Origin: Xanthostigma xanthostigma
Taxonomy: Eukaryota > Arthropoda > Insecta > Raphidioptera > Raphidiidae
Reading direction: 5' to 3'
Length of the DNA stretch: 64,000 nucleotides
NCBI GenBank assembly: GCA_963575645.1
Contig: OY754464.1
Location: 76,358,948-76,422,947, forward strand
Below the pieces are notes generated by a model. It was not told the DNA's origin and searched no databases. It saw only the letters and a program-made list of their open reading frames with translations. The position numbers were made by a program, and so were the translations under genes. Below, one piece after another: positions 7,342 through 62,186 of the stretch (position 1 is its first letter; each line of letters begins with the position of its first letter).

Positions 7342-7832
7342 ATAAATAAAAAGTCGCAGGATTGGGGACAAATATTAGATTTATTAATTGTACGACGTTT
7401 CGTCTATAAATTTAGACTTTTTCAAGTACAAGTTGAAAATTATTAAAACAATAATTATGAAATATGTTTTATTAGAAAAAACAATTCTATTAATTATAGA
7501 ACAGACACTCAAAATTTAAGTGGTCAGTACAACTATATTATGAAATTGAACTAACTTTCGAATTTTTAATTAATTTTTATTTTTATTGTTTAAAAAATTT
7601 ATACATTACTTGTTGCCATGTTTTTGTCTTATGTACCTTAACTTTTGTTAATTGCTATGGTTAGTAATAATTTAATGTTTATTTTCATAATTATTGTTTT
7701 AATAATTTTCAACTTGTACTTGAAAAAGTCTAAATTTATAGACGAAACGTCGTACAATTAATAAATCTAATATTTGTCCACAATCCTGCGATTTTTTATT
7801 TATAATTATCTCGATGGACACGATATCTAATA
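7342..7832 (+). mobile_element. Hammerhead-like palindromic retroelement, copy A
   Basis: An insertion of 491 bp flanked by a perfect 12-bp duplication GATATCAATATT (7330-7341 and 7833-7844). Inverted arms of about 110 bp (about 7342-7462 and 7685-7808) surround a unique centre. Each arm holds a hammerhead-like core. Past the right arm, a short tail TCGATGGACACGATATC reaches the duplication; similar TGGATC-ACA tails end the related insertions at 51.6 and 61.9 kb. The long, variable target duplication argues for retroposition of the Penelope type rather than a cut-and-paste MITE. Confidence 0.75.
7714..7757 (+). ncRNA. Hammerhead-like core, degenerate (copy A, right arm)
   Basis: Stem I is TTGTAC paired with GTACAA. 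The first core box reads TTGAAAA, so it departs from CTGANGA at C3 and G8. Stem II is GTCTA/TAGAC, followed by GAA, a self-complementary ACGT and C. The order and spacing are those of a hammerhead ribozyme whose stem III forms between two copies. The complementary arm repeats it at 7389-7431 on the minus strand. The core changes make activity unlikely. Confidence 0.5.
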
Positions 7833-7844
7833 GATATCAATATT

Positions 7845-8594
7845 CTGCCTTTTGATTTCTTTGACATTTGTTAAATACTTTCATTGAAGTTTATAAACAA
7901 CAGTCGCTGCCACGCAATGAATTGACAGTTCCACCGGGTGACGTCATCTCCTCGTACTATCCAACGGAACGAGGTAACCTCTGTAATCTACTGACCTTGA
8001 TTTAAACAACATTTTTACATTTTATTATAAAATAAACATTATTTTATAGAAATGTCTGTTAATAATTTATAGTTGCGTAATAGTTTCCCATTAAGGTCAG
8101 TTAATAATTAATTTGTCTTTGATGAGTCAGTAACTCTTTGTGCGCGCACTGAATGCTAATATAAAAATGTTTTATTTTTAAACATTTTAAAACTCTAAAA
8201 ATCCTGTGATAATAACTAAATTAATAACATTTGATTTAAATTAAACTAAGTGATACACGAGATATTAAATAATTTCTGTTAAATCTACTTCGCTAAAAAC
8301 TTGATTTTGAAGTGCACAGACAATTAGATGCTGCTATGGTGAAACATTTAAAAGCTTTAAAATATTCCTTAAACTTAACTCAAATAATTTTTTAACGCTC
8401 TTTATATTGTCATTTTAATCTTAAAAGTTGAGCTTTAGTGTAGAGGATAATGAAGAAGTGTTTGGGTTCTAGCGAACGATGTGTGATTAGTCATCAAGAG
8501 TCAGTTTAATTTTTTAAAACATTGGCATTTTCAAAAAGGTAATTTTCACTTGTACTGAAATATGTATTTTCGATAGATATTTTTTCTACTATAG
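7845..8594. other. Unassigned AT-rich DNA
   Basis: About 750 bp with no named repeat and no credible coding frame. Confidence 0.5.
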
Positions 8595-8954
8595 GGAAGG
8601 ATTAGCCCAAACAAAAAAAAGTTTATTTTTAATCGGAGAAATCATTAAGCTAATAGAAAATTGGGGTTGCCATTTAAAATTTTCAAGTTACCCCCACCCC
8701 CCGCTAGAGGGTGAAGGGGTGGTTTTTGTATGAAAACGATCCTTCCTTCAAAACCAAACAACTTTTGTTCCAAACATTTTTTTATTCGAGGCAGAGAAAA
8801 AGAGTTATTCCTTTTTCAACACCTTGTATCAGAAAAATGCTTAATATATAAAAAAATACTCGGGTATGAATAAAAGACACACTATTTAAATTTGATAAAC
8901 GATTACAACTTTTGTCCCAAATATTTTTTTATTCTAGGCACAGAAAAAGAGTTA

Positions 8955-9298
8955 CAGTAGAACCCCGATTATCCGAGGTAACATGGGGAACACCCTACTT
9001 GGATAACTGAAATCTTGGATAATCCGGTTTTATTTTTTATTTATTAAAAAAATAAACACAAATGTACTTTAAACGGTTTATAAACGTTTTTACCATGTAA
9101 ATATTTTTATTAATAAATTATTTTATCGCTTCGACGATTTTAAATGGAAATATTTACATTACATACTATATTTTAGAAGCTCGGTTTACGGATATTGGGT
9201 CTTTAGTGGCTCGATTAATCCGGATCATAGACGCATTAGATTGGCTCGGTTAATCCAGAACTCGGATAATTGCGACTCGGATAATCGAGGTTCTACTG
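8955..9298. mobile_element. pogo/Tigger-like MITE (344 bp)
   Basis: The termini are CAGTAGAACCCCGATTATCC and its near complement (GGATAATCGAGGTTCTACTG), flanked by TA on both sides. CAGTnGAnCCYCGATTATCCG ends are typical of the pogo/Tigger branch of Tc1/mariner elements. The uninterrupted sister unit at about 8810 reads GAGTTATTCC, which is the exact expected empty site. It is non-autonomous. Confidence 0.9.
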
Positions 9299-9391
9299 TA
9301 TTCCTTTTTCAACACCTTGTATCAGAAAAATGCTTATTATATAAAAAAATACTCGGGTATGAATAAAACAGACAAACTATTTAAATTTGAT

Positions 9392-9516
9392 TCTAGGCTT
9401 TTTCAAAAGCCTTATAACCTCGCTCAGGAATAAACCAATCAGGGCCACACAATAGATCTACTAAGGTCGCGGTGTTGACGAGGCGTGCCTCATACCTTCT
9501 ATCTAATCTAATCTAA
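9392..9516 (+). mobile_element. Short retroposed fragment with TCTAA tail
   Basis: A 125-bp insertion flanked by a 13-bp duplication ATTTAAATTTGAT (9379-9391 and 9517-9529) and ending in three TCTAA repeats. This is the profile of a severely 5'-truncated LINE or a SINE copied by target-primed reverse transcription. It does not match the 3' end of the LINE at the start of the window. Confidence 0.75.
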
Positions 9517-9590
9517 ATTTAAATTTGATAAACAATTACAGCTTTTGTCCCAAACATTTTTTTATTCGAGGCCAAGAAAAAGAGTTAATC

Positions 9591-10312
9591 CGAAGTACCG
9601 TATGTATTAAAAACAATTTTTATGGATAGAAAAAATAATGTACTAGACGTGTGCGGTGATTTATTAGATTAACTCCTCTTCAATATCTCTCTTTGACAAA
9701 AAATAAAATAAATACAAATGGTTCAAACAGCGTTAGATAAAATACTTCTATCCCGGTTTTTCATCGTCACTTAAATAATAATACCAGCATAAGAGAGAAC
9801 TGTACGTTTAACTGCAACGGTGAATGGATGAAAGACGCAATCGGCTTCTTCTTTCCTGGTTATCACTTAAACAAATGTCACTACATTTAAACGGATACGG
9901 AAACTAAAGATTCCTGCTGGACATACATATAAAAAAAGAGAGAAGACGAGAAGTAAAGCAAAACGGCGTCCCTTGGTTGGTGTTATTTGTTGGCATTAAA
10001 GAACTAAAGTTTTTCTGACTGACCAGCTCTTAATGCTGACTGTGTTGTCTATTCAGCGCACTACAGTTGGTTTCACATAAACAGGAATTAGTGTTGATGT
10101 TTCTCTATAAAATACAAAATACAGTTCGAATCCCGTTGACGAAAATCGTAAATGCGTGGTCAGAGACGTTATACGTAGTTGTTGCAAACAAATGCAAATA
10201 ATACACCGTAGATCCGTACATACAGTATGCAAACACGTAATGGACTCAGAGCTGGCTACGGAGAAAATGGGTGACTCGGTGCAGAGCTGAAAATTTGCAG
10301 AATAATAGGAGA
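9591..10312. other. Unassigned DNA
   Basis: No gene seen. A CAGTATGCAAACACG phrase at about 10221 resembles the terminus of the neighbouring Tc1-like MITE and may be a relic. Confidence 0.4.
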
Positions 10313-10313
10313 T

Positions 10314-10434
10314 AGTATAAGTAAGTAGGGAAAAAATTGCCAGAAGGCTAGGCGGAAGATAAAGAGCCGCCAGAAGGCGCTAATGTTGCGAAAAATCAGT
10401 GTACTTCTGGCAATTTCTATACTTATTCTGTAAT
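10314..10434. repeat. Small imperfect inverted repeat
   Basis: AGTATAAGTAAG...ATTGCCAGAAG on the left matches CTTCTGGCAAT...ATACTTATTCT on the right, leaving a loop of about 60 bp. It is probably a short MITE; no target duplication is clear. Confidence 0.45.
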
Positions 10435-10457
10435 TCAAAACTAGATTATATATTATA

Positions 10458-11032
10458 CAGTATGTAAACACGTAAAGTGCACTTAGGGAAATTAACATTG
10501 GGAAAAAAAATGACTGGATCAGAGTGAGCCTTGAAATCTTGTTTTTCAATTTGACAGATAATATTCTTTTGCAAAATGAATGTGTATACTACCGAAGAAA
10601 ATATTCAAATGATTACAACATAATCGGACTTTTTTTATTAATGGGACTTTAAATTCCCAAAAATACTTAAATATGGTGCGAGATCGAATATCTCCGCCTA
10701 TTCGTGTTGAGCCTAAAGACATTGGGTCACTGATTTACCAACGCGCATACGTCATACCAGTCAGACAATTTTTGAATGAAATGTTTCCAAACAGATGGAG
10801 TTGTTTTTTTGTTTTATTTTTGTACAAACAAATTAAAATAATGAATTATAAAAGCTTTTTATTATTAAAAAAGCCAAGTAAAATAAAAATAAATCAAAAT
10901 AAAATAGAAATCCTCAAGATTACCACGATATTTCAATAGAAATAACAATTAATGCAGTCATGGCTAACTCTGATCCAAGTATTTTTTCCCAATGCTAATT
11001 TCCCTATGTGCACCTTACGCGTTTACATACTG
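10458..11032 (+). mobile_element. Tc1/mariner-like element, internally deleted, copy 1
   Basis: The ends are CAGTATGTAAACACGTAAAG and the matching complement (CGTTTACATACTG), flanked by TA. The terminal inverted repeat runs for more than 50 bp (GGGAAATTARCATTGGGAAA). The middle keeps a piece of transposase. Copies 2 and 3 are at 32527-32965 and 62680-63233. Confidence 0.85.
10673..10825 (+). pseudogene. Remnant of Tc1/mariner transposase
   Basis: The frame reads VIPVRQFLNEMFPNRW, which resembles the segment of mariner-family transposases (ALPVRnFLNetFPNkW) that precedes the last part of the catalytic domain. Only about 50 residues are similar; the rest of the open frame runs into AT-rich non-coding sequence. 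The two other copies carry the same segment on the opposite strand. No catalytic Asp triad remains. Confidence 0.6.
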
Positions 11033-11062
11033 TACCTATATGCATTTCATAACACGTTTGGG

Positions 11063-11230
11063 GTTCTGTAGTCAAATGGCAAAAAACGGAAACGTTTTAA
11101 TTTTGTCATGTCCGTCCGTCCGTCAGTTCACGCGTCTGTCCGTGCGTCATAGCGTTATAACTGCGCCATTTTTCTATCATATCAATTACAACTCTGCAAT
11201 TAAATTGCTAAAAAAAAATATTTAAGGGTC
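11063..11230 (+). repeat. GTCCGTCC-containing dispersed repeat fragment
   Basis: GGGGTTCTGTAGTCAAATGG, then GTCCGTCCGTC and GTCTGTCCGTGC. This wording recurs in interspersed repeats of many insects. Only a fragment is present and the parent element is not visible. Confidence 0.5.
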
Positions 11231-11274
11231 GATATCCATACATCTGCTATTTCTGTATAGTCAATGCAAGAATA

Positions 11275-11797
11275 ATAGTACGCACTACACAAGAGTGCAA
11301 GACTGAAGATGTGTGAACTATCATCATGCATGCTCAGGAGTCACGTAGCATTGGACAGCACAATACACATACTCAGCTCTGAGCTCATTTTAATGTGATT
11401 CTGATCTTATATTATTCGCATTTCGGATAAACTATAAAGTATAATAAAAGCTTAACAATAATAATGTTTATTGTTACAATATTATGACTTTGTCAACGAC
11501 GTCAATGTGAATGGTTTAAGTCACTGTAAGCTTAGTACTATTACACTTATAGTGTGTCATTCAACATTAAATGACTCAGCAAAGATAACTCCGTACGTGC
11601 AAAATTCACTAGTGCCTCTATGACCTGTGCTGTGTGCGCTCTGTAAATGTGCGAATGCAACAGTACAGAATAGCTTAGCACAGAGCAATGGCGCTCCGAG
11701 TGAGTCATTCTCAAAAAAAAGAGCGACTCGCTCCGCTCCGAGAAAGGAGTCGTTCATTATGAACGACTCGCTCAGGAGCGACACATCACTAGTGTGA
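11275..11797 (-). mobile_element. GAGCGACTCG-family hAT-like MITE, copy 1
   Basis: Reverse copy of a repeat whose intact end reads TAGTGATGTGTCGCTCC, a hAT-style terminus. Landmarks are multiple GAGCGACTCG motifs, a CTGTGCTAAG stretch and a TTGACGTCG region. Copies 2 and 3 are at 25739-26333 and 51091-51375. A frame of about 75 codons is open in all three copies, but it resembles no protein I know. Confidence 0.75.
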
Positions 11798-11960
11798 AGC
11801 GAATGCATAAAAGTTATCACTAAATCCAACGCCATAGCATACTAGACACCTAACGGCCAAATCTGGCAAGGAATCTAGCGGCAAAAGAAGCCACGTGTAC
11901 AGCGGCCTTTAGATTAGGGCTTCTATCCGTGTTGTTACAATTCGCCTGTAGTACTATGTA
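11798..11960. repeat. Short dispersed fragment (CAGCGGCCTTT)
   Basis: The phrase pair GGCCAAATCTGGCAAGGA and ACAGCGGCCTTTAGATTA recurs at about 37387-37435 and in weaker form at about 38620-38645. It may be a decayed repeat. Confidence 0.4.
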
Positions 11961-12618
11961 AAGGTACGTCCAAGATGCAAGCTGGTAGTCAGGTAGTCAG
12001 ACGCTGGTTTTCTGAGTCAGACAGTCGGCGTGCATAAAATCCTTTGTTGCTAAATCAAACTGGCCATAATGCACCAGCGCGCAGTTTTCCGGCGCACCAG
12101 CTCTCTGACTCAGATATTTTACCAGTATGAATTGTACATTCTGGTTTCAGACAACCTGCGTCTGACAGTGTTGTTTTTAGGTGCTATAAAATATGGATAT
12201 CGAGGATTTTATTTCAAAAGGGGGTTTTGTGGAAATTCGCCCAGTTCTTCGCAAGCCTGTGTTCAATTTTTGACAAAATAAAGTAAAAAGTATCCGGACT
12301 CATTCGGAAATATTAAAAAAATCGGTTTTCGACGGCAAGTAATTGCGGAAAAAGGTGTTTGTACTCCCTGTAAATCGACCTTAATTTATTAATTGGATGT
12401 ATTTCACTTTTAACAGGTTTTAATTTAGATGTAACATTGTCACCAAGCAGCAACAAAGCTGCAATCGGTACTGTTCGCTCCATAATTATTTAATATGAAT
12501 TCTCTGTTTGCGCCGATAACCAGCTTTCATATTGGCCACACCCAACGCCGCTCGGAGTCAGACAGTCAGATGCCGAAAATCTGAATCTGACTACCAGCTT
12601 GCATCTTGGACGTACCTT
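11961..12618. mobile_element. MITE with perfect 32-bp inverted ends
   Basis: Both ends read AAGGTACGTCCAAGATGCAA then GCTGGTAGTCAG. The interior repeats GTCAGAC and CTCAGA motifs. It has no transposase. I could not read a target duplication, so the superfamily is open. Confidence 0.8.
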
Positions 12619-12632
12619 AAGAACGTATAGTT

Positions 12633-13155
12633 CAGTGATTCCCAAAGTGGTCTATATCGACCCCCAGGGGTCAACGACAACTTGCAAGGGGTCCATGTCA
12701 GCGGGAAAAAAAATTGGGGGTCAATGAAATGAAAATGGGGGTCAACGATAGAGAATCTCCTAACAACAAAAGAAACAAACTGGACATCGTTAACCGAAGA
12801 GATTTAAGATTAAATCTAACTAAATTGATGCCAAATGTTGAAAATTTATTATTAAAGCATCAGATTCATCCCTCACACCAAAAGCATTTATTTTTCGCTT
12901 AGTTATTTTATGTAACAGAAAGTAAATTTTAATTTGAATCTAATTAATAAATGTATAAAACTAAACATTTCACACTACATTTTACTACCGTTATAAATTT
13001 AAATCGTTCAAAGTGAGTAGCACTATACCGATTGTCAAAAATACATTTGAAATTAATGAATTTGCAAAAAATCAATATCAGATAAGCAGGGGATCTACCC
13101 AAAACCGAAAAATATGGCAAGTGGTCTACGAAACAAAAAAGGTTGAGGAACTCTG
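12633..13155 (+). mobile_element. hAT element, deletion derivative
   Basis: The ends CAGTGATTCCCAAAGTGGTC and complement of CAGAGTTCCTCAACC are flanked by a perfect 8-bp duplication GTATAGTT (12625-12632, 13156-13163). Both the 8-bp site and the terminus are diagnostic of hAT. It keeps a piece of the 3' coding region. Confidence 0.9.
12750..12902 (+). pseudogene. C-terminal remnant of hAT transposase
   Basis: About 50 codons ending at 12902 read DLRLNLTKLMPNVENLLLKH then QIHPSH. This is the extreme C-terminus typical of ZBED/SCAND3-like hAT transposases (the LRL-LT-I-P-I-L family tail). Everything upstream has been deleted. The strand agrees with a transposase reading toward the right terminus. 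Confidence 0.65.
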
Positions 13156-13163
13156 GTATAGTT

Positions 13164-13623
13164 GAACATGCTATTACATATAATATACCCATGTCACTCG
13201 TTCCCGCTATCAGCTATGACCGATCTCCTCTTCACAGATTTGGTTTTTAGCCACCGCTATGAGTCGTATGTTTTCATTGTTCTTCTATATCCCCTTTGTC
13301 AGTTCCTGCTGGTACGTCTGTCTCTTGTGCAGGAAGACGATTTCTGATTTTACAGTATCCTCTTCATTGATGTCTACCAGCACTTCATTGTTAATTTCGC
13401 ATTCATTCATTACTGTGTTAGTATGAGTGCTAATCTGATCAGGAAAACTGAAAATATCAATTTATAATTTCATTTTAATCTAACCTGAAACTTTTGATTA
13501 AACAATACATGTCTGTTTTTAATATCAAATCATTAAAAAAGAACTTTAGAACGTTTAATTATTTCTGCTTGACAACAAACTACATACGAGAAATATTATT
13601 GTATTTTAAAGAAAATGAAAAAT
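13164..13623. other. Unassigned DNA
   Basis: No repeat family or gene recognised between the hAT element and the foldback. Confidence 0.4.
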
Positions 13624-13627
13624 TTAA

Positions 13628-14724: not shown

Positions 14725-14737
14725 TTAAGTAATCGAA

Positions 14738-18682: not shown

Positions 18683-18686
18683 TTAA

Positions 18687-33872: not shown

Positions 33873-33873
33873 T

Positions 33874-38566: not shown

Positions 38567-39018
38567 GTGAAGTGAACACCTAAAAGCCCTCACGAAACGT
38601 CACAGCAGTCTTGAAACCTAGCAGCCAAATCGTGTGCATCGGCCTTTACTTCATCGTTATGTGATTTGACAATTATTCCCAGAAATTTCAATATTGTTCA
38701 AAAGACGGCATTAATTTGGTCGATTCGCATAATTGCTATTAATGGCAACGTGTAATTAACTTGAGATTAAGTGAGTATTAACAGGCCTTTACAAAGCCAC
38801 TCATCCTTTGTTTATGAAATATTCATGGCATACATTTATGGTCACAGAAGGTACTGGATGCCTAATAGAATCAATAATGTACACATTTGTGTACGTCTGT
38901 TTCTATGCCATATTGCAATTACCACTATAGGTGGGAAATTTGATTCTGTTGGATGATTCGTACGTTTAGTATACAAAACCTTATCATTAGTTTCAGATTT
39001 CTGCTGTCTAATCCATAT
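38567..39018. other. Unassigned DNA
   Basis: No feature seen apart from the short fragment at about 38607-38645 (see 37309). Confidence 0.4.
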
Positions 39019-39984
39019 GTTACGCTCAAAGATCGAAAACGCTCAGTGAGCGAAAAAATAGCTCACAACGCGTTGTGGTCACAGTAAAACATCCACATCG
39101 CGAAATTCGTGTTATGGCTCTAATAAAAACGCGCACGACGCGTTGTGGCAATCACAGAAAGACCAAATAGCGAAATTCGTGTCGTGACTGACATGCTATT
39201 CGATCTCAATGCGTTGTGGCTATAAAGAAAAGCCATGACGCGTATGGAATATTATTTGATTACGACGCACACTACTTTCCGATATGGATCCTACTAGGCC
39301 TAGGCTGGAAACGTTTTGGTAGATGTCCTTAGGAAATATTTTTTATTTTATAAAATCACTGCATAACGTGTTTGTCATTATTAAATATGTTATATAATTA
39401 TATAAATTAAAATAAAACGATATTTATTATTTGTTATTTATTGAGATTACTTTATATTTAAAAAAAATCAACGTATGAATTAATAAATTACTGAACACAA
39501 AATATTAATCATTATTTTGTAAATTACTTATAATTCACTTAAAATAATTAGGGATTTTAATTTTCATACAGGACATTATTTATGCTGGATTTTTTTCATG
39601 CTGGAGATTTTATTACTGGATATTATGGTACTGGATATTATGGTACTGGATATCTTGGTACTGGATATTGATACCGGTAACCTTTTCTCTGTATATACCC
39701 TTAAAATCATAGTTCTGATTCTGTCCGTCGTGATATGGTTAAAACAATGAATGCTCAGAACGCGTCATGGCTTTTCTTCATTGCCACAACGCGTTGAGAT
39801 CGAATAGCATGTCAGCCACGACACGAATTTCGCTATTTGGTCTTTCTGTGGTTGCCACAACGCGTCGTGCGCGTTTTTATTAGAGCCATAACACGAATTT
39901 CGCGATGTGGATGTTTTACTGTGACCACAACGCGTTGTGAGCTATTTTTTCGCTCACTGAGCGTTTTCGATCTTTGAGCGTAAC
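39019..39984. mobile_element. Long-TIR foldback with CGCGTTGTGG subterminal repeats
   Basis: Arms of about 240 bp (39019-39255 and 39750-39984) begin GTTACGCTCAAAGATCGAAA and mirror each other almost perfectly. Each arm repeats ACGCGTTGTGG three times and GCGAAATTCGTGT twice. The flanks CATAT/CATAT hint at a target duplication. The centre is AT-rich with a 15-bp minisatellite. Confidence 0.9.
39609..39671. repeat. 15-bp minisatellite
   Basis: ACTGGATATTATGGT repeats about four times with small changes. Confidence 0.85.
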
Positions 39985-40209
39985 ACATATATTTAATTCC
40001 CGTTATATTGCTAGCAAAGATCGGGAGAAAGACTTAAACACTACGGTGCAGACATATATATACGTCTGTCTCGCTTATTATACTCTGAGTCTCATGCGCA
40101 TGTCCGTGAATGGATGCGCGTCAGTTGCAGTGTCAGTTTACTGTGAAAGGGAGATAGTTTGCTCTGTTCCACTTATTAATTGCCCCACTACAGATGCAAC
40201 ACTTGTAAG
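39985..40209. other. Spacer
   Basis: No feature seen; an 83-codon frame at 39974 is unsupported. Confidence 0.35.
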
Positions 40210-45880: not shown

Positions 45881-46731
45881 CAGGATGATGGGTAATTGCT
45901 CGTATTCCTCTCGGGAGAAGAAACTATGACTAATTTGGAATGATTTAACCTCTATCACCTGGTTGTCGGAAGTGCGTCATTTTCAAAAAATGTACTTTGG
46001 TTTTCTTTTTACAAAAATCCGAATTTTGGGAGTTAAAAATTAAAAAACAAAAATTCTCACTTTTTGACCTGAATTTTTCCATGACTAATTAAATAAAATA
46101 TTTTTAACAAAAAAATTGAACCGACTTCAAAAAAGGCACTAAAAAGTAAAAAATAATTGCGTATTGAAATGTTTTGGAGTCGGTGTAGTTCTCGGAATAG
46201 ATTTTATTTTGGCTGACACCGACGCCAAAACATTTCAATACGCAATTATTTTTTACTTTTTAGTGCCTTTTTTGAAGTCGGTTCAATTTTTTTGTTAAAA
46301 ATATTTTATTTTTCTCTTTTTAGTGTTAATCTAACACTAAAAATCGATGAACATACATAAAAAACATTATGCATGCCTTTGAAATTTGAGAGTTTCCCTC
46401 GATTTCTCCGGGATCCACCATCAGATCCTGACTTGGTTCCGATGGGACCACCTCGGAAGTGCACTCTTTCGAATAAAAAAAAAAATTGAAAATCGGTCCA
46501 TAATTGACGGAGAAATCGGTGAACATACATAAAAAAAAAATATACAGACGAACATAGAACCTCCTCCTTTTTGTTGAAGTCGGTTAAAAAATACAATAAG
46601 AATTCTTCACAGAAGTGTCATTATCTTAAAAAATGACGCATTTCCAACCCCCAAGTGATAAGGTTAATTCACTCCAAAATAGTCATAGTTTCTTGTCTCG
46701 AGAGGAACACGAGCAATTACCGGTCACTCTG
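45881..46731. mobile_element. TA-flanked MITE with GGTAATTGCTCG ends, copy 1
   Basis: CAGGATGATGGGTAATTGCT at the left mirrors AGCAATTACCGGTCACTCTG at the right, inside flanking TA; about 90 bp of subterminal symmetry follow (AAGAAACTATGACTA / TAGTCATAGTTTCTT). A TA target and CAG-like ends fit Tc1/mariner. Another repeat (46089-46597) lies inside. Confidence 0.82.
46089..46597 (-). repeat. ACCGACTTCAAAAAAGG repeat, nested copy
   Basis: Bounded by AATTGAACCGACTTCAAAA on one side and GTTGAAGTCGGTTAAAAAAT on the other, with an internal hairpin (TTGCGTATTGAAATGTTTTG and complement at 46155-46250). Shares CTCCTCCTTTTTG and CACTCTTTCGAATAAAAAA with the opposite-strand copy at 53051-53600. This is a widespread insect repeat wording. 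Confidence 0.8.
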
Positions 46732-47995: not shown

Positions 47996-48351
47996 CCCCA
48001 CTTTAATTTTTCCAAAAAGTTTCTAGATGTCATTCCGAATCGAATGACACCATGATCATAATTTTCGGTGAAGGAGGATTGGAATTCAACAAAAAGGGAC
48101 ATGTGAGCTTGCCTAGAGGGATGCTGACGTAACGTTTCCACAGCTGCCTAGGCAGTCGGTAAATCTTTACCAGATTTTGAATTGGGATTTCTGAATGATC
48201 TGACCACAATCTTTCAATAAAAACCCAATCCCTTCTTCTTTTTGTACTAAAATGTTTATAACTTTTGCAATTTTTTCGTTCCCCACTTCAATTTTTCCAA
48301 AAAGTTTCTAAATGTCATTCCGAATCGAATGACACCATAATCATAAATTTT

Positions 48352-48732
48352 TAAGTGTGTGAGATCCTGGATGATGATATAGTAAGTTGTCGTTTTTAGA
48401 GGAAGAAGGATCATAGAAAACTATCAAGACGAAATTTTTATTTTTCGCAACGTTTCGTGTTGTAATTAACACTTCATCAGGCGATCTACAAACATTAATA
48501 CTAATGGATCTCACAAATAAATACAAAATTATTACAACCTTATCTTAACCTTACCATAAAATACTAGATCTTGACATAGTCAAAATAAAATTATTATTGT
48601 CATATCGTAATGTAAGTTGAAATAATGTTAGACAAAATTCTTGCATCAATAAAATAATAAATTAAAACCAATCTTCAATCGTGTTTTAGAACATAAAAAT
48701 ATATAATGATCTCTTGCTAGAATATATCAATT
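48352..48732 (-). mobile_element. Hammerhead-like retroelement, copy B
   Basis: A 381-bp insertion in the tandem unit, flanked by a perfect 12-bp duplication ATCATAAATTTT (48340-48351, 48733-48744); unit 1 shows the empty site. On the minus strand it ends CCAGGATCTCACACACTTAA, like the GGATC-CACA tails of copies C and D. A second GGATCTCACA lies at 48504. It carries the best-conserved hammerhead-like core of the window. Confidence 0.8.
48445..48484 (-). ncRNA. Hammerhead-like core, best conserved
   Basis: Minus strand: stem I TCGC, then CTGATGA (exact C3-A9 core), one unpaired A, stem II GTGTT/AACAC with a six-base loop, GAA, self-complementary ACGT for stem III, U as the H17 position, then GCGA closing stem I. 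The single extra A before stem II differs from classical hammerheads. With a 4-base stem III, pairing between two copies would be needed. Confidence 0.6.
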
Positions 48733-48912
48733 ATCATAAATTTTGGTGAAGGAGGATTGGAATTCATCAAATTCATCAAAAAGGGACATGTGAACTTGCC
48801 TAGAGGGATGCTGACGTAATGTTTCCACAGCTGTCTAGGCACTCGGTAAACCTTTACTAGACTTCTAAATTGGGATTTCTGAACGGTCTTTTAAGAAAAA
48901 CCCAATCCCTTA

Positions 48913-49737: not shown

Positions 49738-50141
49738 CTCACGGCAATATTAGGATTTTTTTTATCTTATACCGGATGTAAAATACTTCAAAATATAAAA
49801 AAAATAATTTTGATATTTTTTAGCTGAATTCTTAATAAGGTCCAAACCCGGATCGAAACGTTTATTGATTGAATTATAATTATATATTTTGTTAATATAT
49901 TGTCTGAAAAATTGGTCGATAATTTTATTTATTGAAGAGTAATCAGACGTTAATCAAAGATTTGTAGTATTTTTTTGTTAAGTGATTTTCCGAGGTTAGA
50001 GAAACAGGTGTTAAATCAACTGATTTTATTTATGTCCAACCTTTCGTAATAATATTTTATAAAACGTTCCACATAAGTAAATACTAGGCTTAAACACGAA
50101 TTCCTCGGAAAACTATTTAACATTGAAATCATAAGAATTGG
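49738..50141. other. Spacer with short dispersed fragment
   Basis: About 49910-49970 repeats a 60-bp piece of about 28907-28970. Otherwise nothing seen. Confidence 0.45.
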
Positions 50142-51375: not shown

Positions 51376-51591
51376 AGATATTCAGACATTGCGGAACTTT
51401 TTGAACATCTGTATACATACATAAATATAGATTATTTTATACAATCTACTTCGGTTGTCTTCTTACAAAAATCCGAATTTTGGGAATTAAAAATAAAAAA
51501 AAAATATATTCTCACTTTTTGACCTGAATTTTTCCATGATCTGATAGCTTACTAATTGGTTAACCTTCCTAAAGCTAAAGCTAAAGATTTT

Positions 51592-51868
51592 ATGGATGAG
51601 TATTTGGAAAGAATTCCGTGGCATAAGGATCGAAAATGAAGCAATACTGAGATTTCTTTAAACTTGCATTTAATATTAACGTTTCGATACGTTTTGTATC
51701 ATCTTCAGAGTACAAAACGTATCGAAACGTTAGTATTAAATGCAAGTTTAAAAAAATCTCAGTATTGCTTCATTTTCGATCCTTATGCCACGGAATTCTT
51801 TCCAAATACTCATTATTAACTTCAATGGATCACAGTTACTCTATTTATTGAATAGAGTCAATCTTCAT
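51592..51868 (+). mobile_element. Hammerhead-like retroelement, copy C
   Basis: A 277-bp insertion flanked by a perfect 11-bp duplication CTAAAGATTTT (51581-51591, 51869-51879). Nearly perfect palindrome (about 51597-51812) followed by a unique tail TCAATGGATCACAGTTACTC. The tail matches in style the ends of copies A and D. Confidence 0.8.
51673..51713 (-). ncRNA. Hammerhead-like core in copy C
   Basis: Minus strand: CTGAAGA (fits CTGANGA), one extra T, stem II GATAC/GTATC with a five-base loop, GAA, ACGT, U. Stem I pairing is weak here (alternating matches), so this copy is probably decayed. Confidence 0.5.
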
Positions 51869-52006: not shown

Positions 52007-52574
52007 TATATCAATTTATTTGGTGTACAGACACACAAAAATGTCCATTTTTCCAGCCTCCAGATTTCATATCAAATAAATAATAGATACAAATGACTCA
52101 TTTCATTTCATGGTAAACACAAGTCGTTTTTCGGAAAACAATTTCTGTAACACATGAAAATATATTTTTCGAAACGTTGGCCACAAGCGATACTCCGGTA
52201 CAGCTTATTTTTCAATTGTTCCTCAGCCAAATAAATCTCCTTCAATACATATTTTTGGAACTTCTATATTACAAAGCCAATTCTGATTGTCAGAATTACT
52301 TCCTAAACAAAAAAAAACTTTTGAACTTTTTAAACTGAATATATATGAAAATACTAAGAATATCAAAATGTGATTTGTAACATCACTCAACTAAAGTTTG
52401 CATACTGTTTAAAAGATTGCTGATGGGGCATCTCACTTTGACACTTTAGAATAATATTATTTTCACTTTGATATTCAAGTTTTCATATTATATACTGACT
52501 GAAATGCCCACTTAACGAAAACTTTCAGTACTTCTGAAATAATGACGACGAAGCATGTAAATAGTTATACATAT
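52007..52574. repeat. Spacer holding a hammerhead-like fragment
   Basis: 52145-52195 reads TGAAAATATATTTTTCGAAA then CGTTGGCCAC, the stem II and 3' core of copy D, with the 5' core box lost. No complete element or duplication was found around it. Confidence 0.5.
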
Positions 52575-54987: not shown

Positions 54988-55054
54988 TAAGAGTAATTTG
55001 CATCTTTTTTCGGACGGAAATTAGTACATGTTTCCGCAGTCTTTGTAGATTCTA

Positions 55055-55290: not shown

Positions 55291-56194
55291 AACCACCGCC
55301 ATGTTCGCCACTCCAACACACACACACACAACAAGTAGTTCAACGCATACACACAGCAAGCGCAAACGAAACATAACACGTCCCGTGAACAGCGTCGCGC
55401 CAGTTGCTTGGCATTAGATGTTTCACATTCTTTTTCTTAGGAAACTAATACAAAATAATCCAGAGTTCATTGCTCTGTTTGGAAATTAAATTACAAGAAA
55501 ATCTAAACGTTTAATAATTTATTAATTGTTGTTTTCAGTAATTAAATATTATGCATATACGAGTATTTCCGACAGTTTCAATCTTAACGTTTTCGAAACG
55601 AACTCCAACTTATCGAAACATCAATGTCTATGTTATATCAACTTCATTAAGTGGAATTAAAAGCATTTGTATGTTAGGAATTGAATTAACTTTATATATA
55701 TGACTAATTAATAAGTAAGGTAGTCAATTTACGTTATACAGGTGTATTCAAGTACACACAATCAAAGGATGATGGGGGCACGTAAAGACAAGAAATAAAT
55801 ATGTTTAGTGTGGACACAATATTATTTATTGGCATAATAAATAAAGTCATTTTCCAGAGAGAAATTACTTGTTTCTTATTACCTATATTTTGTCGGTACA
55901 AAGATAATGAATGTACCTAACATTACTCAAATCGTGTACATTTTTTTTTAATTTATTTTTGTGTGCTGACAGGACTGTCATTGACCAGTAGTGTACATTA
56001 TAACAATAATAATTTTTTTTTATTTTTTCATATTCAATTTTACGTGATATTATGTTACAAACTGTTGAGGATTTCCTGCCCAACTTGGTAAAATTACTGA
56101 AAAACATTAAAAATCTTTTTGACTTAAACATTTGACACATAATTTATACAATGATCGTTTTACGCAATTGCGTCTGGAATGAAATGGTAATATA
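55291..56194. other. Unassigned DNA with a CA microsatellite
   Basis: (CA)n at about 55318-55330. No gene seen; the minus frame at 55883-56140 has no signature. Confidence 0.4.
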
Positions 56195-56835
56195 TTGTAA
56201 CAAAACTGTTGTTTATTGGTGGGATGAATATTTATTTACAAAAATAAACGTTAACCAAAACAAACTAATAAGTACTGCTCTAATAATAATGAAATAATAA
56301 AAAAACAAACAAATTCTAGAGAAACTATAACAACACTGAACTACTATAATAATAATAATAATAATAATAATAATTTTATTCGTTTCAGAAAAGCTCTGTT
56401 GAGCATGTGTAGTGAACATACATAATTTAACATAATTTTAACATACATACATAATTTAACCTACTTATTATACTACATAACTCAAAAAGAACCTGAACAA
56501 CCACCAACAATACACGTTAAACACAGAATAATTATATCATAGTTCTTCTATTTATCTCTATATTTATTTAGAACGCTCGTTTATTTATGTCGATCGTGGA
56601 CTGTCACTGACACTGACTGACTGCCCCACTGACTCGCTACGCGTTGCTTATATACCTCACTAGTCGCGTACTCGAACATTTCACGACATTCTAAAAGCTT
56701 CGATATGCTTCTATGCGGTATAACAATGCGTAACAATACGCGCATTCTTGTCTATGCGGTTCCGACGACAACAACGCGAGTATTGTTGTCTACGCGGCCT
56801 GACAAAAATGCAGTGCCCCCTCCCAGTGGCGTCAC
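56195..56835 (-). mobile_element. LTR fossil, minus orientation
   Basis: From TGACGCCACTGGGAGG at the right to CAGTTTTGTTACA at the left, with TATATAAGCAACGCG and GCAGTCAGTCAGTGTCAGTG. Related to 41294-41575. A TAA microsatellite lies within. No internal region attached. Age cannot be set without its partner. Confidence 0.75.
56348..56376. repeat. (TAA)n microsatellite
   Basis: About ten TAA/AAT units inside the LTR fossil. Confidence 0.9.
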
Positions 56836-56932
56836 ATCATTCTTCGCATAAATACGTCACAGATTCATCTGCACATAAAGTATTTATTTATTTATCAGTG
56901 CCTAGCCGATTTCAACGGGAATGATTGCGTAA

Positions 56933-57495
56933 GGGCTCTTGTTAACGCCTGTTTTAGTCAGCCGACGCTAAACGGTTAACTTTGTACTCGATCCGCTAAT
57001 ATATGTGAGCGCGTCCGTTGTTTTCGATATCAGTTCTATACTTGAAGTGCGAAAAAGTACGTTATGTCTTGCTTGTTTATTTTTGTAATTTTCTAAAGTC
57101 TTCTCCCAACACTGGCCTATTATGAACAAGGCTAATTAATAAATCCATATCAATATCAATTTTAAACTCCCTATTCAATATGAGCACAACAAGGTAGGTA
57201 GGTAGGTATAGGTAAAAACGTGCGCGCACATCTGTCGTCGTCAACAGACTTTTATGAAATTACGTGGTCCACTGCATCGAACCGACCTCCGTCGCGCCGA
57301 GGGGCGACGTGCGGGTATTCACAATGAGCAGTACAAAGTAGATAGGTATAGGTAAAAACGTGCGCGCACATCTACCGTCGTCAACAGATTTCTATGAAAT
57401 TACGTGGTCCACTGCACAAACACCCACATTAACCTACTACCCGTCACCCGTCATAAAAATCGGGCCGTTATCCGTTGTTCGTTAAGAAGAGGCCA
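56933..57495 (-). mobile_element. PIF/Harbinger-like element, copy 2
   Basis: GGGCTCTTGTTAACG at the left, AAGAGGCCA at the right, TAA on both sides (56930-56932, 57496-57498). Opposite orientation to copy 1. It holds a direct duplication of about 110 bp: GTAGGTATAGGTAAAAACG-type starts at about 57202 and 57340, each followed by GTGCGCGCACATCT. Confidence 0.85.
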
Positions 57496-57498
57496 TAA

Positions 57499-57974
57499 GC
57501 GTTGGTTACATGTTTAACTTTCTAGGTTATATTTCTTTAGGAAACTCTGTATAATAGTTGAGTCACGACACCCTGTATGTAATTCACAGTCTAGTATTTC
57601 TGAATCTGAAATAGTGTTCCCGCTTTAACAAAAGAACATCCCCGCAATCTAATTGCCAACAACATGAATCGTAAAGCAGTTTGAACCGGTGATTGCGCGC
57701 GTGTAAAAACAAAGCGAGCAAAGTGAAACCTGGCAGCGATTCTTCTGCAGTTGTAGATATCATGGAAAGCGAAGTACAAGCACTTGAATAAAATATTAGG
57801 TATGCGCATTTCACGTAGCCTCTCGCGGATTTTAATTCATTCGAGAAGATATAAAGAATTACTTAACTGAATTAAACACAGACAGTGCACAGTATAAAGC
57901 AACCTAACATCCTCAATATTTTTGTTGAAAAATATTGTCTTGCTTCTCAGATATTTGAGCTTCTGTTCAATATT
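57499..57974. other. Unassigned DNA
   Basis: No feature seen beyond AAACCTGGCAGCGA (57727), a short phrase also found at 37.4 kb. Confidence 0.4.
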
Positions 57975-58700
57975 TCTACTAATATATAAAGCTGAAGAGT
58001 TTGTTTGTTTGTTTGATTGGTTGAACGCGCTAATACCAGGAACTACTGGTTCAAATTGAAAAAAAAAACAGTTTATTGTTGGATAGCCCATTTATCGAAT
58101 AAAGCTATAGGCTATATAATATCACACTACGACCAATAGGAGTGGAGCATCAATGAAAAATGTTGCAAAATGTATCTCAAAAATAACTTCTTTTCAGGTG
58201 AAATGCCGTAACTACATATATCAATATTAGGTCGTACATTCACAAGCCCGGGTAGGTCAGTCGGTAGAGCATGCGACTGTTAATATCAGGGTCGTGGGTT
58301 CGAGCCCCTCGCTGGGCGAATATATTTTTATATTTTTTTTATTTTCTACATTGCTTTCTTCTAAGGCTTACATTTTTTATTTTAGATTTATTTAGGACTA
58401 ATTAAAATTAAATAAATCTAATTAATAGCTCATTTGAAAACTGTTATAACTATAGGTACCTATATAAAAATAATTATGCTACAGTGTTTTCAAATAAATA
58501 TTTATTATATTTTATTAATTACAGTAATTATAGTATAAATACTGCTTTTTATCGACAAAAACTTTTGAACGGTAATTCCGATCATCATGAAATTTGGACA
58601 CAACATTCATCTCTGTAAACTAAGATGAATGTGCATACTCATGTTCCTCCCTTCTCCATTCGTTCTTTTGCACCCGGGTGAAACCGTACGGGACCGCTAG
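57975..58700 (+). mobile_element. tRNA-bearing Helitron, copy 5
   Basis: TCTACTAATATATAAAGCTG start and GTACGGGACCGCTAG|T end, full set of internal blocks, and the extra AT-rich segment shared with copy 2. Confidence 0.9.
58246..58318 (+). pseudogene. tRNA-Lys-derived sequence in Helitron 5
   Basis: The best-kept tRNA shape: acceptor GCCCGGG against GCTGGGC, A box GGTCAGTCGGTAGAGC, B box GGTTCGAGCCCC, 73 nt. The loop is CTGTTAA (GTT), but the anticodon stem has two mismatches. Pol III promoter boxes look intact. Confidence 0.8.
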
Positions 58701-58734
58701 TTGTTTATATAGAGAAAGCTTTTTAATGCTTATT

Positions 58735-59400
58735 AGTAGTACTTTTTAAGTATTGATTATTAAATTTAAATAGTTTAACTCTTTTATTTATACCCGAATA
58801 TTTTTTATACGTATATTCAGCATTTTTATTATACAGGATTTTGAAAAAATCCCGGTATCTTGGAATAACTCTTCTTCTATGACTCGAATTAAAAAATGTT
58901 TGGAGCAAAACTAGTTTAGTTTTAATGGAAGGATCGTTTGCGCACAAAACCATCCCTGACCCCTTCACCCCCTCGCAAGGGATGGTCGTAACTTGGAAAT
59001 TTCAAATGTCATCCCCTATTTTTTATTAGCTTAATAACTTCACCGATTAAAAATAAACATCTTTTGCCCGAAACTTGTTTTTATTCGGGCTAATCTTTCC
59101 CCACGAATCAGCTTGTGTGTCTACGTAACTCCATGAGAAAGGATTAGCCCAAACAAAAAAAAATTTCGAGAAAAAGATGTTTTGTTTTAATCGAAGACGT
59201 CAATAAGCTAATAAAAAATAGGGGTTGCCGTTTGAACTTTTCAAATCACCCCCACACCCGCGAGGGGGTAAAGGGTTAAAAGGTGGTTTTGTATATGTAA
59301 ACGATCCTTCCTTCAAAATCAAACAACTTTTGTCCCAAACATTTTTTTATTCGAGGCTAAGAAAAAGAGTTATTCCGGGATACCGAAACTTTTTCAACAC
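58735..59400. repeat. Inverted pair of the CTTTTGTCCCAAAC repeat
   Basis: The repeat described at 8595-9590 occurs here twice, reverse (to about 59095) and forward (from about 59138), sharing CGATCCTTCC, AGCTAATAnAAAA and GGATTAGCCCAAAC. Confidence 0.8.
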
Positions 59401-59407
59401 CCTACAC

Positions 59408-59709
59408 CAGAGGTCGGCAACCTTTTGAAACGGAAGAGCCAAAAGTTACAATTTACAATATTTCCCAGTTTTTAAGAGCCACTAAACATTTTCGTTTCAG
59501 TATTATAGTATTTGCTTATATAGGTATAATATAATATATATCCGAGGACGACACGTCGCGACGGGGGCGGTGCGGGTGAGCCGCGAGTGGAAATGGCTGA
59601 CAGATAGACATAGTAATCATGGATCGATTAGACTATTTTTAAGGGTTTATATATTAAAATAATTATTTTTTGCGTATGGAACTGGAGAGTCGCAGGTTCC
59701 TGACCCCTG
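59408..59709. mobile_element. hAT MITE (302 bp)
   Basis: CAGAGGTCGGCAACC and GGTTCCTGACCCCTG ends, flanked by CCCTACAC and CCCTATGC, an 8-bp duplication with two changes. Inside, AAGAGCC occurs twice. Terminus and target length are those of hAT. Confidence 0.88.
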
Positions 59710-59760
59710 CCCTATGCATCTTTCTTGTAGTGTTATTATTATTATTTTTAAAACTAGTGT

Positions 59761-60339
59761 GACCTGTGTGAATTATTCGCACTAAATAAGTATAATAATT
59801 ATCACTTTACAAAATTATTTTTTAAATATGATTGCAGGTATTCAATTCGTTTCTAATTTTGCACACTGCTTATAACGTTCTTCTTTTTGTTGTATTACAA
59901 TATGAAGCTCAGATGACAGATCGAAGAAATATTTTTAAAATTGTCATATAGAGGCGCAAATAGCAAAAGCGTTGAGCTAAGCCAGATGGCATCATGCAGC
60001 ATTGCTGTGACGTTGTTCAGCGTTGCTCGCTGTTTCAAAATTAAAACCGTCAGATGGCAGTATGCAGTATTGTGTCTGCTGTATTACAATATGAAGGTCA
60101 GATGACAGATCGAAGTGTTGACGTTGTTTCAAAATTAAAGTCGTCAGATGGCAGACGTTGTTCAGCGTTGCTGTATTTTAATTAATTTACAAAAACAAAA
60201 GCAATACATTTTTTAGTTGTCGATGTCAGTAGACCAAGCAATTATCTGTAAAATGATATATAATTTATGTGGAGAAATTGTGAGTTTTTTTCTAAAAAGG
60301 GAGGCAAACATCTTTAACCTTAGCGTATTAATATATATG
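59761..60339 (+). repeat. 600-bp dispersed repeat, copy 2
   Basis: Same as 35934-36525, with few substitutions and small gaps. The high identity between loci about 24 kb apart suggests recent amplification. Confidence 0.85.
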
Positions 60340-60779
60340 ATATTACTGTTAAATTTTCATTGGTCAATACAAGATTTGCTTATGTTTTTGTCAACACAAT
60401 ATTGATTTTCATACTTTCACTAAACTTTGTTTTGATAATTTACATTTGAAGTTAGACATATGGGAAGCATCTTGTTAATGTAGCGAGGGTGAAATTAACC
60501 TGGAATTGAAACAGAAACTAGGGTGCGTGGAAATCAGCTTTCTTACAATATGAGGAGATACATACTCGTAGTTAATTTAGCCCCATTCGCCTAATTGCAT
60601 GTTTGCCTATAAAACAAGTGTTCAGATAATCTTACTTTGCATCTATAAATAGGAAATCAATAATCATATGTCTTGTATGGGTTTTCCTAAGCAAAAATCA
60701 TCATATGTTTTGATTTTTGCTTAGGAAAACCCATACTATACTTTCTGTAGAATAAAACCCATACTATACTTTTATTCTA
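60340..60779. other. Spacer with a small palindrome
   Basis: About 60673-60735: GTATGGGTTTTCCTAAGC and its complement with a short loop. ACCCATACTATACTT occurs twice right before the next element. Confidence 0.6.
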
Positions 60780-61015
60780 CAGATTGTATCAAATCAAAAC
60801 GGTCCATAGAACTGTGTGTAAGACAGAGACGATATATAAAGCAGTAAGTAAGAATGAGATAAATGATCGCTAATAGTTACTGTGGTTACGTAAATAAATA
60901 ATTACGTACACTGTAAATCTTTTTACCAATTTATCAATTAAAACAACTAAAATGTAATATTAACTCGTATTATTATTTATATCTGGTACAAAAGTTTTAA
61001 CAATACTTTTAATAA

Positions 61016-61228
61016 TTAATTTATTAAATGTTCAAAAAGACGTTCTGCCAAACAATATCCTAATCGATTATAAATATTTTCCCTCACATTGGCTGACATC
61101 TCATGGTCAACGGACTGACATGCATTGGAAATCTGTATTTTCAATTCGTTCAAATTATTAGCTCTAATTTCTTGAAAACCATAAATTTTGGATTTTACAA
61201 ATCCCCATAAAAAAAAAATTCGGAGATA
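61016..61228 (-). pseudogene. C-terminal part of the same transposase
   Basis: Frame reading FFLWGFVKSKIYGFQEIRAN then NLNELKIQISNAC. FFLWG-LKSKVY is the block that follows the last part of the DDE domain in this family. It overlaps the previous remnant in another frame, showing an internal deletion near 61220. Confidence 0.75.
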
Positions 61229-61397
61229 GGCAACCATTTGATTCAAATTCTCGTATGACACTGCGAATTGTTATTTTAGACGGAGACAGTCTGTTTTCAA
61301 AGGCAGCTACAAATAAATTTATTATATCGGCGGTTGAATTACCACAATAAAACCATTTAATTATTTGGATTTTTTCCCGAACAGTATAAATAGGCAT
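61218..61397 (-). pseudogene. N-terminal part of DUF4817-type transposase
   Basis: MPIYTVREKIQIIKWFYCGN then STADIINLFVAAF and SPSKITIRSVIREFESNGCL. This helix-turn-helix opening (YT..E...I...Y) is the DUF4817 domain found in front of many arthropod Tc1/IS630-type transposases. The DDE centre is missing. Confidence 0.75.
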
Positions 61398-61606
61398 TTT
61401 ATCAATAATAATCACTAGTGAATACTGACATTTGATAAAATTGTGATTTTTACTGTAGAAAACAAAGACGATACTATCAGATTGTATAACCACAGTAACT
61501 AGCTATTAGCGATCATTTATCTCATTCCTACTTATTGCTTTATATAATAACGTCTCAGTCTTACACACATAATGTTCTATGGACTGTTTTGATTTGATAC
61601 AATCTG

Positions 61607-61909
61607 TATACTAAGCATAGGAATAAAATCGCAATCAAAATATTACTTAGGGTGCAAACAAATACTTCTAAAATTTTAAGAAAACGTTAGTTTGCAGACA
61701 TGGATTTACTTAGTGAAGAGTGAATTTAATTTGCTAAATTGATAGTAATATTGAAATTAAGAAAAAAATATTATTTTAAGGGATGTATTAATGGGTTAAA
61801 ATTTTTATTTTGTTCAAAAACAAAAGGGTTTTAATTCACATATAAAGCCACACTGTCTATATTAGAAAATACACTATAATGTCGGCAGGGTTTCGCACTG
61901 CGACCCGAG
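61607..61909. other. Unassigned DNA
   Basis: No feature seen. Confidence 0.4.
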
Positions 61910-61919
61910 TTTTTATTTA

Positions 61920-62186
61920 TTACGATGAAGGAAGGTTTTGGTTGAGGATCATAAATAAGCTTTACCAATGTTATGCTAGTGGCCAACGTTTCGAAAAATT
62001 TATTTTCATCTTCACAGTCTCAAGCTGGTCAAAAGGTGTTAAAGCTTGAGGCCCTAAAGATGAAAATAAATTTTTCGAAATGTTGGTCACTAGCGTAACA
62101 TTGCTAAAGCTTATTTATGATCCTCAACCAAAACCTTCCTTCATCGTAACATTCTATTGGATCGACACTACTTTATGCTGAAGACA
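61920..62186 (+). mobile_element. Hammerhead-like retroelement, copy D
   Basis: A 267-bp insertion flanked by a perfect 10-bp duplication TTTTTATTTA (61910-61919, 62187-62196). Long palindrome (to about 62150; TTACGATGAAGGAAGGTTTT at the outer edge), then tail TATTGGATCGACACTACTTT. Both arms hold the core. Confidence 0.8.
62050..62088 (+). ncRNA. Hammerhead-like core in copy D
   Basis: Stem I GGCC with GGTC; core CTAAAGA (one change from CTGAAGA); extra T; stem II GAAAAT/TTTTTC; GAA; ATGT; U. The minus-strand arm at 61981-62016 shows GAAACGTTGGCC and a GTGAAGA core. Between the two arms every consensus base is present once. Confidence 0.5.

What the first reader, a model, noticed from the sequence alone, without database searches (positions are those of the whole stretch)
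7342..62186. A family of palindromic insertions carrying hammerhead-ribozyme-like cores, with 10-12 bp target duplications
Seen: four insertions (7342-7832, 48352-48732, 51592-51868, 61920-62186) have perfect duplications of 12, 12, 11 and 10 bp, long inverted arms, and end in a TGGATC-ACA-like tail. Each arm or loop holds the ordered set CTGANGA-like box, one extra base, hairpin, GAA, ACGT, U/C; stem I encloses the set in copies A, B and D and is weak in C. Copy B (48445-48484, minus) keeps CTGATGA, stem II GTGTT/AACAC and stem I TCGC/GCGA exactly. Hairpin sequences differ between loci while pairing is kept, which is covariation. Known: Penelope-like elements and retrozymes carry hammerheads, and Penelope insertions have variable duplications. 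Inference: these are small Penelope- or retrozyme-like elements with a self-complementary ACGU stem III that would work as dimers.
Basis: partly seen in the sequence, partly recalled or inferred. Interest (0 to 1): 0.82.

Follow-up and report, generated by a model that had tools for sequence, protein, structure and literature searches.

The report
Penelope retroelement ends carrying hammerhead motifs
The short insertions are leftover ends of Penelope-type jumping genes that carry small hammerhead-ribozyme motifs, a known kind of element; one family has an unusual change in the ribozyme's active centre that could help test whether the ribozyme matters for jumping.

Summary
The four insertions are real, with exact 12, 12, 11 and 10 bp target duplications. 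Long inverted arms are present in A, C and D, not in B. Two further decayed copies lie in the window. They are solo, mostly head-to-head pseudo-LTRs (pLTRs) of Penelope-like elements (PLEs). Copy A matches the pLTR of an 840-aa PLE family over 324 nt, including its start-codon tail; D matches a second family; B and C are tied to PLEs only by motif and anatomy. One core pattern occurs 1,856 times genome-wide against 8 for its reverse; 28 of 30 windows beside PLE ORFs carry the core in sense. Stems I and II covary. Stem II forms only with one extra base after CUGANGA. No Rfam hammerhead model matched the copies searched. Minimal PLE hammerheads that cleave as dimers are already published, so the class is known. 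Further details: three different self-complementary stem III sequences, and an amplified family (A) with U3-A8 in place of the C3-G8 core pair in 23 of 23 windows. Published mutagenesis predicts that to be weak: a natural test of whether PLEs need the ribozyme. No cleavage was tested.

The parts
7330..7341 (.). target duplication of copy A, left (12 bp)
7342..7832 (+). copy A: head-to-head inverted solo pLTRs of the 840-aa PLE family; inverted arms 7339-7462 and 7683-7806
   Evidence: 324 nt, 89% to the flank of a PLE ORF
7386..7433 (-). copy A hammerhead motif, left arm (core UUGAAAA: U3, A8)
7712..7759 (+). copy A hammerhead motif, right arm (same core)
7807..7832 (+). copy A tail, ends in letters that match the first codons of the PLE ORF (ATGGACACGATATCTAAT = MDTISN)
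7833..7844 (.). target duplication of copy A, right
48340..48351 (.). target duplication of copy B, left (12 bp)
48352..48732 (-). copy B: single-direction solo pLTR, no long inverted arm
   Evidence: matches solo genomic copies only
48441..48488 (-). copy B hammerhead motif, full core CUGAUGA-A-GUGUU/AACAC-GAA-ACGU-U-GCGA
48733..48744 (.). target duplication of copy B, right
51581..51591 (.). target duplication of copy C, left (11 bp)
51592..51868 (+). copy C: palindromic insertion, arms 51596-51698 and 51711-51813, tail about 51814-51868
51670..51716 (-). copy C hammerhead motif (only the left arm has the whole core; the right arm starts inside it, by eye)
   Evidence: 43.1 bits
51869..51879 (.). 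target duplication of copy C, right
61910..61919 (.). target duplication of copy D, left (10 bp)
61920..62186 (+). copy D: palindromic insertion of the D-type pLTR family, arms 61920-62026 and 62043-62149, tail about 62150-62186
61977..62023 (-). copy D hammerhead motif, left arm (decayed: C3 to G)
62046..62092 (+). copy D hammerhead motif, right arm (decayed: G5 to A, stem III AUGU)
62187..62196 (.). target duplication of copy D, right
52154..52261 (+). copy E: decayed single D-type pLTR arm, not in the finding (94% over 108 nt to L108, beside the 888-aa PLE frame)
49803..49964 (+). copy F: decayed pLTR of another PLE clade with hammerhead relic at 49823-49870, not in the finding

Best explanation
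The insertions are short, 5'-truncated Penelope-like retroelement copies: one or two pLTRs, usually joined head to head. Mechanism (inferred): a PLE protein, known for the anole element to cut and extend both target strands in vitro, nicks an AT-rich site with about a 10-12 bp stagger and starts reverse transcription at one of two internal sites near the start of the ORF. Synthesis from both strands back across the ribozyme region gives two inverted arms; the two start sites explain why only one end carries the tail (about 25-55 bp here); fill-in gives the duplication. The arms carry the PLE's minimal type I hammerhead (one extra base before stem II, stem III a short self-complementary sequence), which would be expected to cleave mainly as a dimer in tandem PLE transcripts. 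Shown: anatomy, PLE linkage (A, D), covariation. Inferred: cleavage, dimer action, bidirectional priming.
For: Exact duplications. Genome-wide 923+933 matches to CTGATGAN{0,16}CGAAACGT against 5+3 for the reversed pattern. An 804-aa ORF with RVT_1 and GIY-YIG has cores on both sides; an 840-aa and an 888-aa frame have a core upstream and downstream (L116, L108). Of 30 windows fetched beside PLE ORFs, 20 have the core by descriptor and 8 more by covariance model, all 28 on the ORF's strand; 2 have none. Copy A aligns to six flanks of its family, best 324 nt at 89%, E 1e-115; D aligns best to L121 (91% over 96 nt) and to L108 (84% over 82 nt), E to L108 (94% over 108 nt), F to L134 (87% over 165 nt). 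D-type copies: 12 distinct head-to-head pairs, tail at exactly one end in 10, at neither in 2, at both in 0; flank repeat of 9 bp or more in 9 of 12. Unfiltered pairing over 34 distinct segments: stem I 84 of 102 cells (permutation mean 43.2), stem II 119 of 136 (74.2).
Against: No cleavage, RNA or circular-RNA data. B and C were not found next to an ORF, and B is not palindromic. No Rfam hammerhead model scored at E<=10 in B, C, D or 20 genomic loci (copy A was searched only at gathering level). Copies A and D have altered cores and are probably weak or dead. 12 of 34 distinct core segments do not form 3 uninterrupted stem II pairs. 3 of 12 D-type pairs show a flank repeat of 7 bp or less. 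In a further set of 12 small windows around PLE ORFs, 6 had no core.
Confidence: 0.93

Rival explanations
1. Non-autonomous retrozymes: small elements that spread as hammerhead-processed circular RNAs, mobilised by another retroelement.
For: Small size (267-491 bp), type I-like hammerheads, and PLEs present in the same genome, as proposed for animal retrozymes (PMC7229834, abstract and passages). One listed pair of same-strand cores lies 193 bp apart (C1:19594134 and 19594327), a tandem that I did not follow up.
Against: Animal retrozymes are described as tandem repeats giving 170-400 nt RNAs, with canonical hammerheads having loop-loop contacts; the four window insertions hold no tandem monomers. 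A and D align to pLTRs beside PLE ORFs and D-type copies end at a one-sided tail.
Confidence: 0.04
2. MITEs or foldback DNA transposons that merely contain hammerhead-like letters.
For: The window has 31 inverted-repeat pairs of 40 nt or more within 1.5 kb, so palindromes are common here; terminal inverted arms plus duplications are MITE-like.
Against: The tail is on one end only, duplication length varies from 10 to 12 bp, and the same sequence flanks PLE ORFs. No search for a transposase with these termini was made.
Confidence: 0.01
3. The PLE hammerhead is under no selection in the A family: U3/A8 is plain decay hitch-hiking in a family that transposes without ribozyme activity.
For: In vitro pairwise mutagenesis of a type III hammerhead found strong rescue only for the C-to-G/G-to-C swap at the pair numbered C20-G25 there (I take it as C3-G8), all other changes in that region being low (PMC9901934, passages). 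Ribozyme mutants did not affect insertion by the anole PLE in vitro (PMC11167929, main text).
Against: Both changes hit the one core base pair and keep it Watson-Crick while the other core letters, stem I (6 bp) and stem II (5 bp) are kept; 23 of 23 windows from 21 PLE copies share it. Copy A shows 0 of 44 mismatches in the motif in each arm against 15 of 260 and 9 of 76 outside (gaps not counted, arms not independent).
Confidence: 0.6

Closest known systems
Penelope/Poseidon-type PLEs with hammerheads (anole PAc element, PMC11167929, main text read)
   Same: GIY-YIG plus RT ORF, tandem pLTRs, hammerhead at the pLTR/ORF junction, internal start of reverse transcription, tail defined by two start sites, AT-rich targets
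   Different: here the motif lies about 70 to 125 nt before the first ATG in the two families read instead of overlapping the start codon; solo head-to-head pLTRs are the form studied here
Bdelloid rotifer Penelope families (PMC3846280, passages)
   Same: inverted pLTRs, 31-bp tail optionally at one inverted pLTR, 8-10 bp duplications, palindromes at the junction, pLTR reaching into the ORF start
   Different: the word hammerhead does not occur in that main text; there the palindromes were read as self-priming on an antisense template
Small hammerhead variants of PLEs that cleave as dimers (Lunse, Weinberg and Breaker 2017; title seen in reference lists, paper not held)
   Same: PLE association, small hammerheads, dimer model (from the title and from citing reviews)
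   Different: could not check whether that set has the extra base before stem II or any U3-A8 core
Animal retrozymes (PMC7229834, abstract and passages)
   Same: type I-like hammerheads, small size
   Different: direct PLE homology here; no tandem monomers in the window insertions; circles not testable

Membership tests
Penelope-like element | ORF with reverse transcriptase and GIY-YIG endonuclease | tested here: met
   804-aa ORF: RVT_1 3e-11 and GIY-YIG 1e-5. 888-aa frame: GIY-YIG 2e-4, just below its cut-off, no RVT_1 hit; 840-aa frame: no Pfam hit at 1e-3 and no RT or GIY-YIG hit at E<=1. Both are nevertheless homologous (5e-170 to each other, 840-aa to the 804-aa ORF 2e-57) with YVDD and YVGQT motifs (meaning of the motifs recalled)
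Penelope-like element | pLTRs around the ORF, tandem or inverted | tested here: met
   head-to-head solo copies
Penelope-like element | optional tail at one end and variable target duplication | tested here: met
   tail at exactly one end in 10 of 12 D-type pairs, flank repeat 9 bp or more in 9 of 12; window 10-12 bp
Penelope-like element | direct homology of each window copy to an ORF-bearing PLE | tested here: inconclusive
   met for A and D (and E, F); B and C matched only solo copies; the genome search with copy C did not complete
Hammerhead ribozyme (minimal type I) | conserved core C3 U4 G5 A6 N7 G8 A9 / G12 A13 A14 / A15.1-U16.1 / H17 (numbering recalled) | tested here: met
   B and C intact; D one change per arm (left C3, right G5) plus a stem III change in the right arm; A has U3 and A8
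Hammerhead ribozyme (minimal type I) | stems I and II supported by covariation | tested here: met
   34 distinct segments, no filter on pairing; 22 sequences picked by me, mostly well paired
Hammerhead ribozyme (minimal type I) | match to a curated Rfam hammerhead model | tested here: not met
   no hammerhead at E<=10 in B, C, D or in 20 genomic loci, none at gathering level in the window; the models expect a longer stem III (recalled)
Hammerhead ribozyme (minimal type I) | self-cleavage at H17 | not testable with these tools
   needs RNA
Retrozyme | tandem monomers with one hammerhead each, giving 170-400 nt circular RNAs | tested here: inconclusive
   no tandem monomers within the four window insertions; genomic loci were not scanned for tandems, and one listed same-strand pair 193 bp apart was not followed up; circles not testable

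The most novel reading that the evidence does not exclude
The A-family hammerhead is a natural, selected swap of the catalytic-core base pair C3-G8 to U3-A8 in an amplified PLE lineage, active as a stem-III-paired dimer or with its protein; together with the regular extra base before stem II and the differing but self-complementary stem III (ACGU, ACAUGU, ACUAGU), this is a distinct dimeric hammerhead subclass that Rfam misses.
Probability: 0.25. Interest if true: 0.7.

Novelty: new member of a known kind. Interest (0 to 1): 0.45.

Why it matters
The in vivo role of hammerheads in PLEs is called a mystery in a 2020 review (PMC7761336, passages). This genome holds, side by side, amplified PLE families with an intact core and one with a U3-A8 core. 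That makes the question 'do PLEs need the ribozyme?' directly testable. The curated model library missed these motifs in the copies searched; a simple covariance model built here finds them.

Tried and rejected
Rfam: at gathering level only a tRNA in the window; at E<=10 no hammerhead, but many long-hairpin matches to microRNA families below their cut-offs, a by-product of the palindromes, and a few other sub-threshold families. Viral contigs: 6 pattern hits, lying in long open frames that look phage-like by eye (no family search), judged chance. MITE and retrozyme readings: see rivals. I first read copy A's core as random decay; dropped when 23 of 23 windows (21 PLE copies) of its family showed the same letters. 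A hand-typed table had at least one wrong row (L015); it is replaced by scripted extraction and not used. Dropped rows: two descriptor matches (one in L121, one in L125) and two overlapping ones in L102 were set aside as wrong by eye; for the alignment, 12 of the 33 segments printed were left out, mostly those with poorly pairing stem II, so overstates pairing and one search is the fair count. Not answered in spite of repeats: genome counts of cores without the extra base and of position 3/8 genotypes in the A family. So the regular extra base rests and on the rows listed, none of which reads CTGATGAG but which are only a part of the 1,856. A search with copy C DNA did not complete. Planned but not run: whether D-type copies stop at the predicted cleavage site; a transposase search.
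Full report
What was checked. The window is 64 kb of a 623,323,696-base genome in 28 contigs. The 9 listed relatives of its PLE protein that name an organism are insects or a springtail (120 of 799 matches listed). The four insertions have exact flanking duplications of 12, 12, 11 and 10 bp; 10 bp or more by chance has a rate of about 1.7e-5 (1 in 60,000 trials). A, C and D are palindromic; B is not. Core descriptors with one extra base find 2, 3 and 4 hits as mismatches are allowed, against shuffle means of 0, 0 and 0.03 in 60 shuffles.

The motif in the genome. The pattern CTGATGAN{0,16}CGAAACGT occurs 923 + 933 times; the reversed control 5 + 3. Close minus/plus pairs show head-to-head copies; one listed pair is same-strand, 193 bp apart. 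I fetched 30 loci around the first hits on contig 1 and 18 further stretches, chosen by me mainly for differing hairpins. Over L007-L137 and the window, one search found 97 exact cores (overlapping loci count twice) with 34 distinct middle segments, taken without any filter on pairing. The first base after the core is T in 17, A in 16, G in 1; the second is G in 32 of 34. An uninterrupted stem II of 3 bp or more forms in 22 of 34, always in the register with one extra base, never with none or two; 12 of 34 do not form it. Stem I (3 bp): 84 of 102 cells pair against a permutation mean of 43.2 (maximum 63 in 3,000); stem II (4 bp): 119 of 136 against 74.2 (maximum 91). On 22 sequences that I picked, mostly well paired, 88.2% of cells pair against 50.3% shuffled and 27-45% slid; covariation score 0.859 against 0.193. 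That set is biased towards pairing; one search is the fairer count.

Link to Penelope-like elements. A GIY-YIG search gave 37 matches. An 804-aa RT/GIY-YIG ORF has a core just upstream, one downstream, and an inverted copy beyond. Of 30 windows fetched beside PLE ORFs, 20 have the core by descriptor (two further matches dropped as wrong by eye) and 8 more by the covariance model; L120 and L123 have none. L126 lies in the same tandem array as L108, L123 extends L096, and many windows belong to the same families, so the 30 are not independent. In an earlier set of 12 smaller windows on either side of ORFs, 6 had a core by descriptor and the other 6 none by model either. An 840-aa frame (A family) and an 888-aa frame (D family) have the core upstream in sense. 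Copy A aligns over 324 nt at 89% to the flank of its family; D best to L121 (91% over 96 nt), beside an ORF 75% identical to the D-family ORF, and to L108 beside the 888-aa frame (84% over 82 nt); E to L108, F to a third clade; B and C match only solo copies. The end of copy A matches the ORF's own start, ATGGACACGATATCTAAT.

Anatomy of solo copies. In D-type loci the sense end is either ...AAATCTCCTTCA or about 25-35 bp further on, near ...CTACTAACAA. In 12 distinct head-to-head pairs among the 30 loci, the longer form sits at exactly one end in 10, neither in 2, both in 0; of the 2, L012 shows a partial tail that the script missed. Flank repeats are 9 bp or more in 9 of 12 (9-16 bp; the script takes the longest match and may include letters of the element's end; one lies in a simple repeat) and 7 bp or less in 3. 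This matches the published tail as the stretch between two internal start sites of reverse transcription, in an element whose protein cuts and extends both strands (PMC11167929, main text read), and the one-sided tail and inverted pLTRs in rotifers (PMC3846280, passages). Bidirectional priming from both target strands is my inference; the rotifer paper preferred self-priming on an antisense template.

The ribozyme variant. [quoted passage not shown] here it is the rule in what I saw. Stem III is ACGU in most families (partly by choice of pattern); ACAUGU (L092) and ACUAGU (L124, L125, L089) in others, each self-complementary, which fits the dimer model; L085 has AUGU. Nothing here tests dimers.

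The A family. Its core is UUGAAAA instead of CUGANGA: U3 and A8 in place of the C3-G8 pair, the rest kept. This holds in 23 of 23 windows from 21 PLE copies and in both arms of window copy A, where the 44-nt motif has no mismatch while flanks have 15 of 260 and 9 of 76 (suggestive only). A modified-guanosine study calls the G8-C3 pair necessary (PMC9217987, passages). Mutagenesis of another hammerhead found strong rescue only for the G-C swap (PMC9901934, passages; equating its C20-G25 with C3-G8 is mine), and ribozyme mutants did not affect anole PLE insertion in vitro. So either this pair change is tolerated here, or an amplified PLE family does without an efficient hammerhead. I lean to the second.

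Verdict. It is a known kind: solo pLTRs of PLEs with minimal hammerheads. Searches for prior reports; the two key papers (2014, 2017) are not held, so I cannot say whether the extra base or a U3-A8 core is in print.

Noticed in passing
window 161-3953: Two long overlapping open frames (312 and 985 aa) that read as a non-LTR retrotransposon; the longer has reverse-transcriptase-like motifs (by eye; not searched).
   Followed up: no
window 58246-58318: tRNA-Asn (GTT) gene found by both ARAGORN and Rfam.
   Followed up: no
window 39010-39993, 4817-5782, 46091-46311 and others: 31 inverted-repeat pairs of 40 nt or more; several have 90-250 nt arms and were not examined; they may be other foldback elements or MITEs.
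   Followed up: no
window 48352-48367 and about 48500-48514: Copy B has a GGATCTCACA-like tail in opposite directions at its end and in its middle, though it has no long inverted arm; unexplained.
   Followed up: no
L085 (G000:C4:23140500-23150000): PLE in mixed tandem and inverted arrangement with three identical core segments, one truncated copy facing its mirror image.
   Followed up: partly
L027 and L042: A-type pLTR sequence lies close to other pLTR insertions (by eye), so PLE ends may nest in one another.
   Followed up: no
G000:C3:18458401-18468643: Tandem array of D-family PLE copies, three hits in frames of 871-888 aa at about 3-kb spacing.
   Followed up: partly
G000:C1:19594134-19594356: Two same-strand D-type cores 193 bp apart, a possible tandem.
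   Followed up: no
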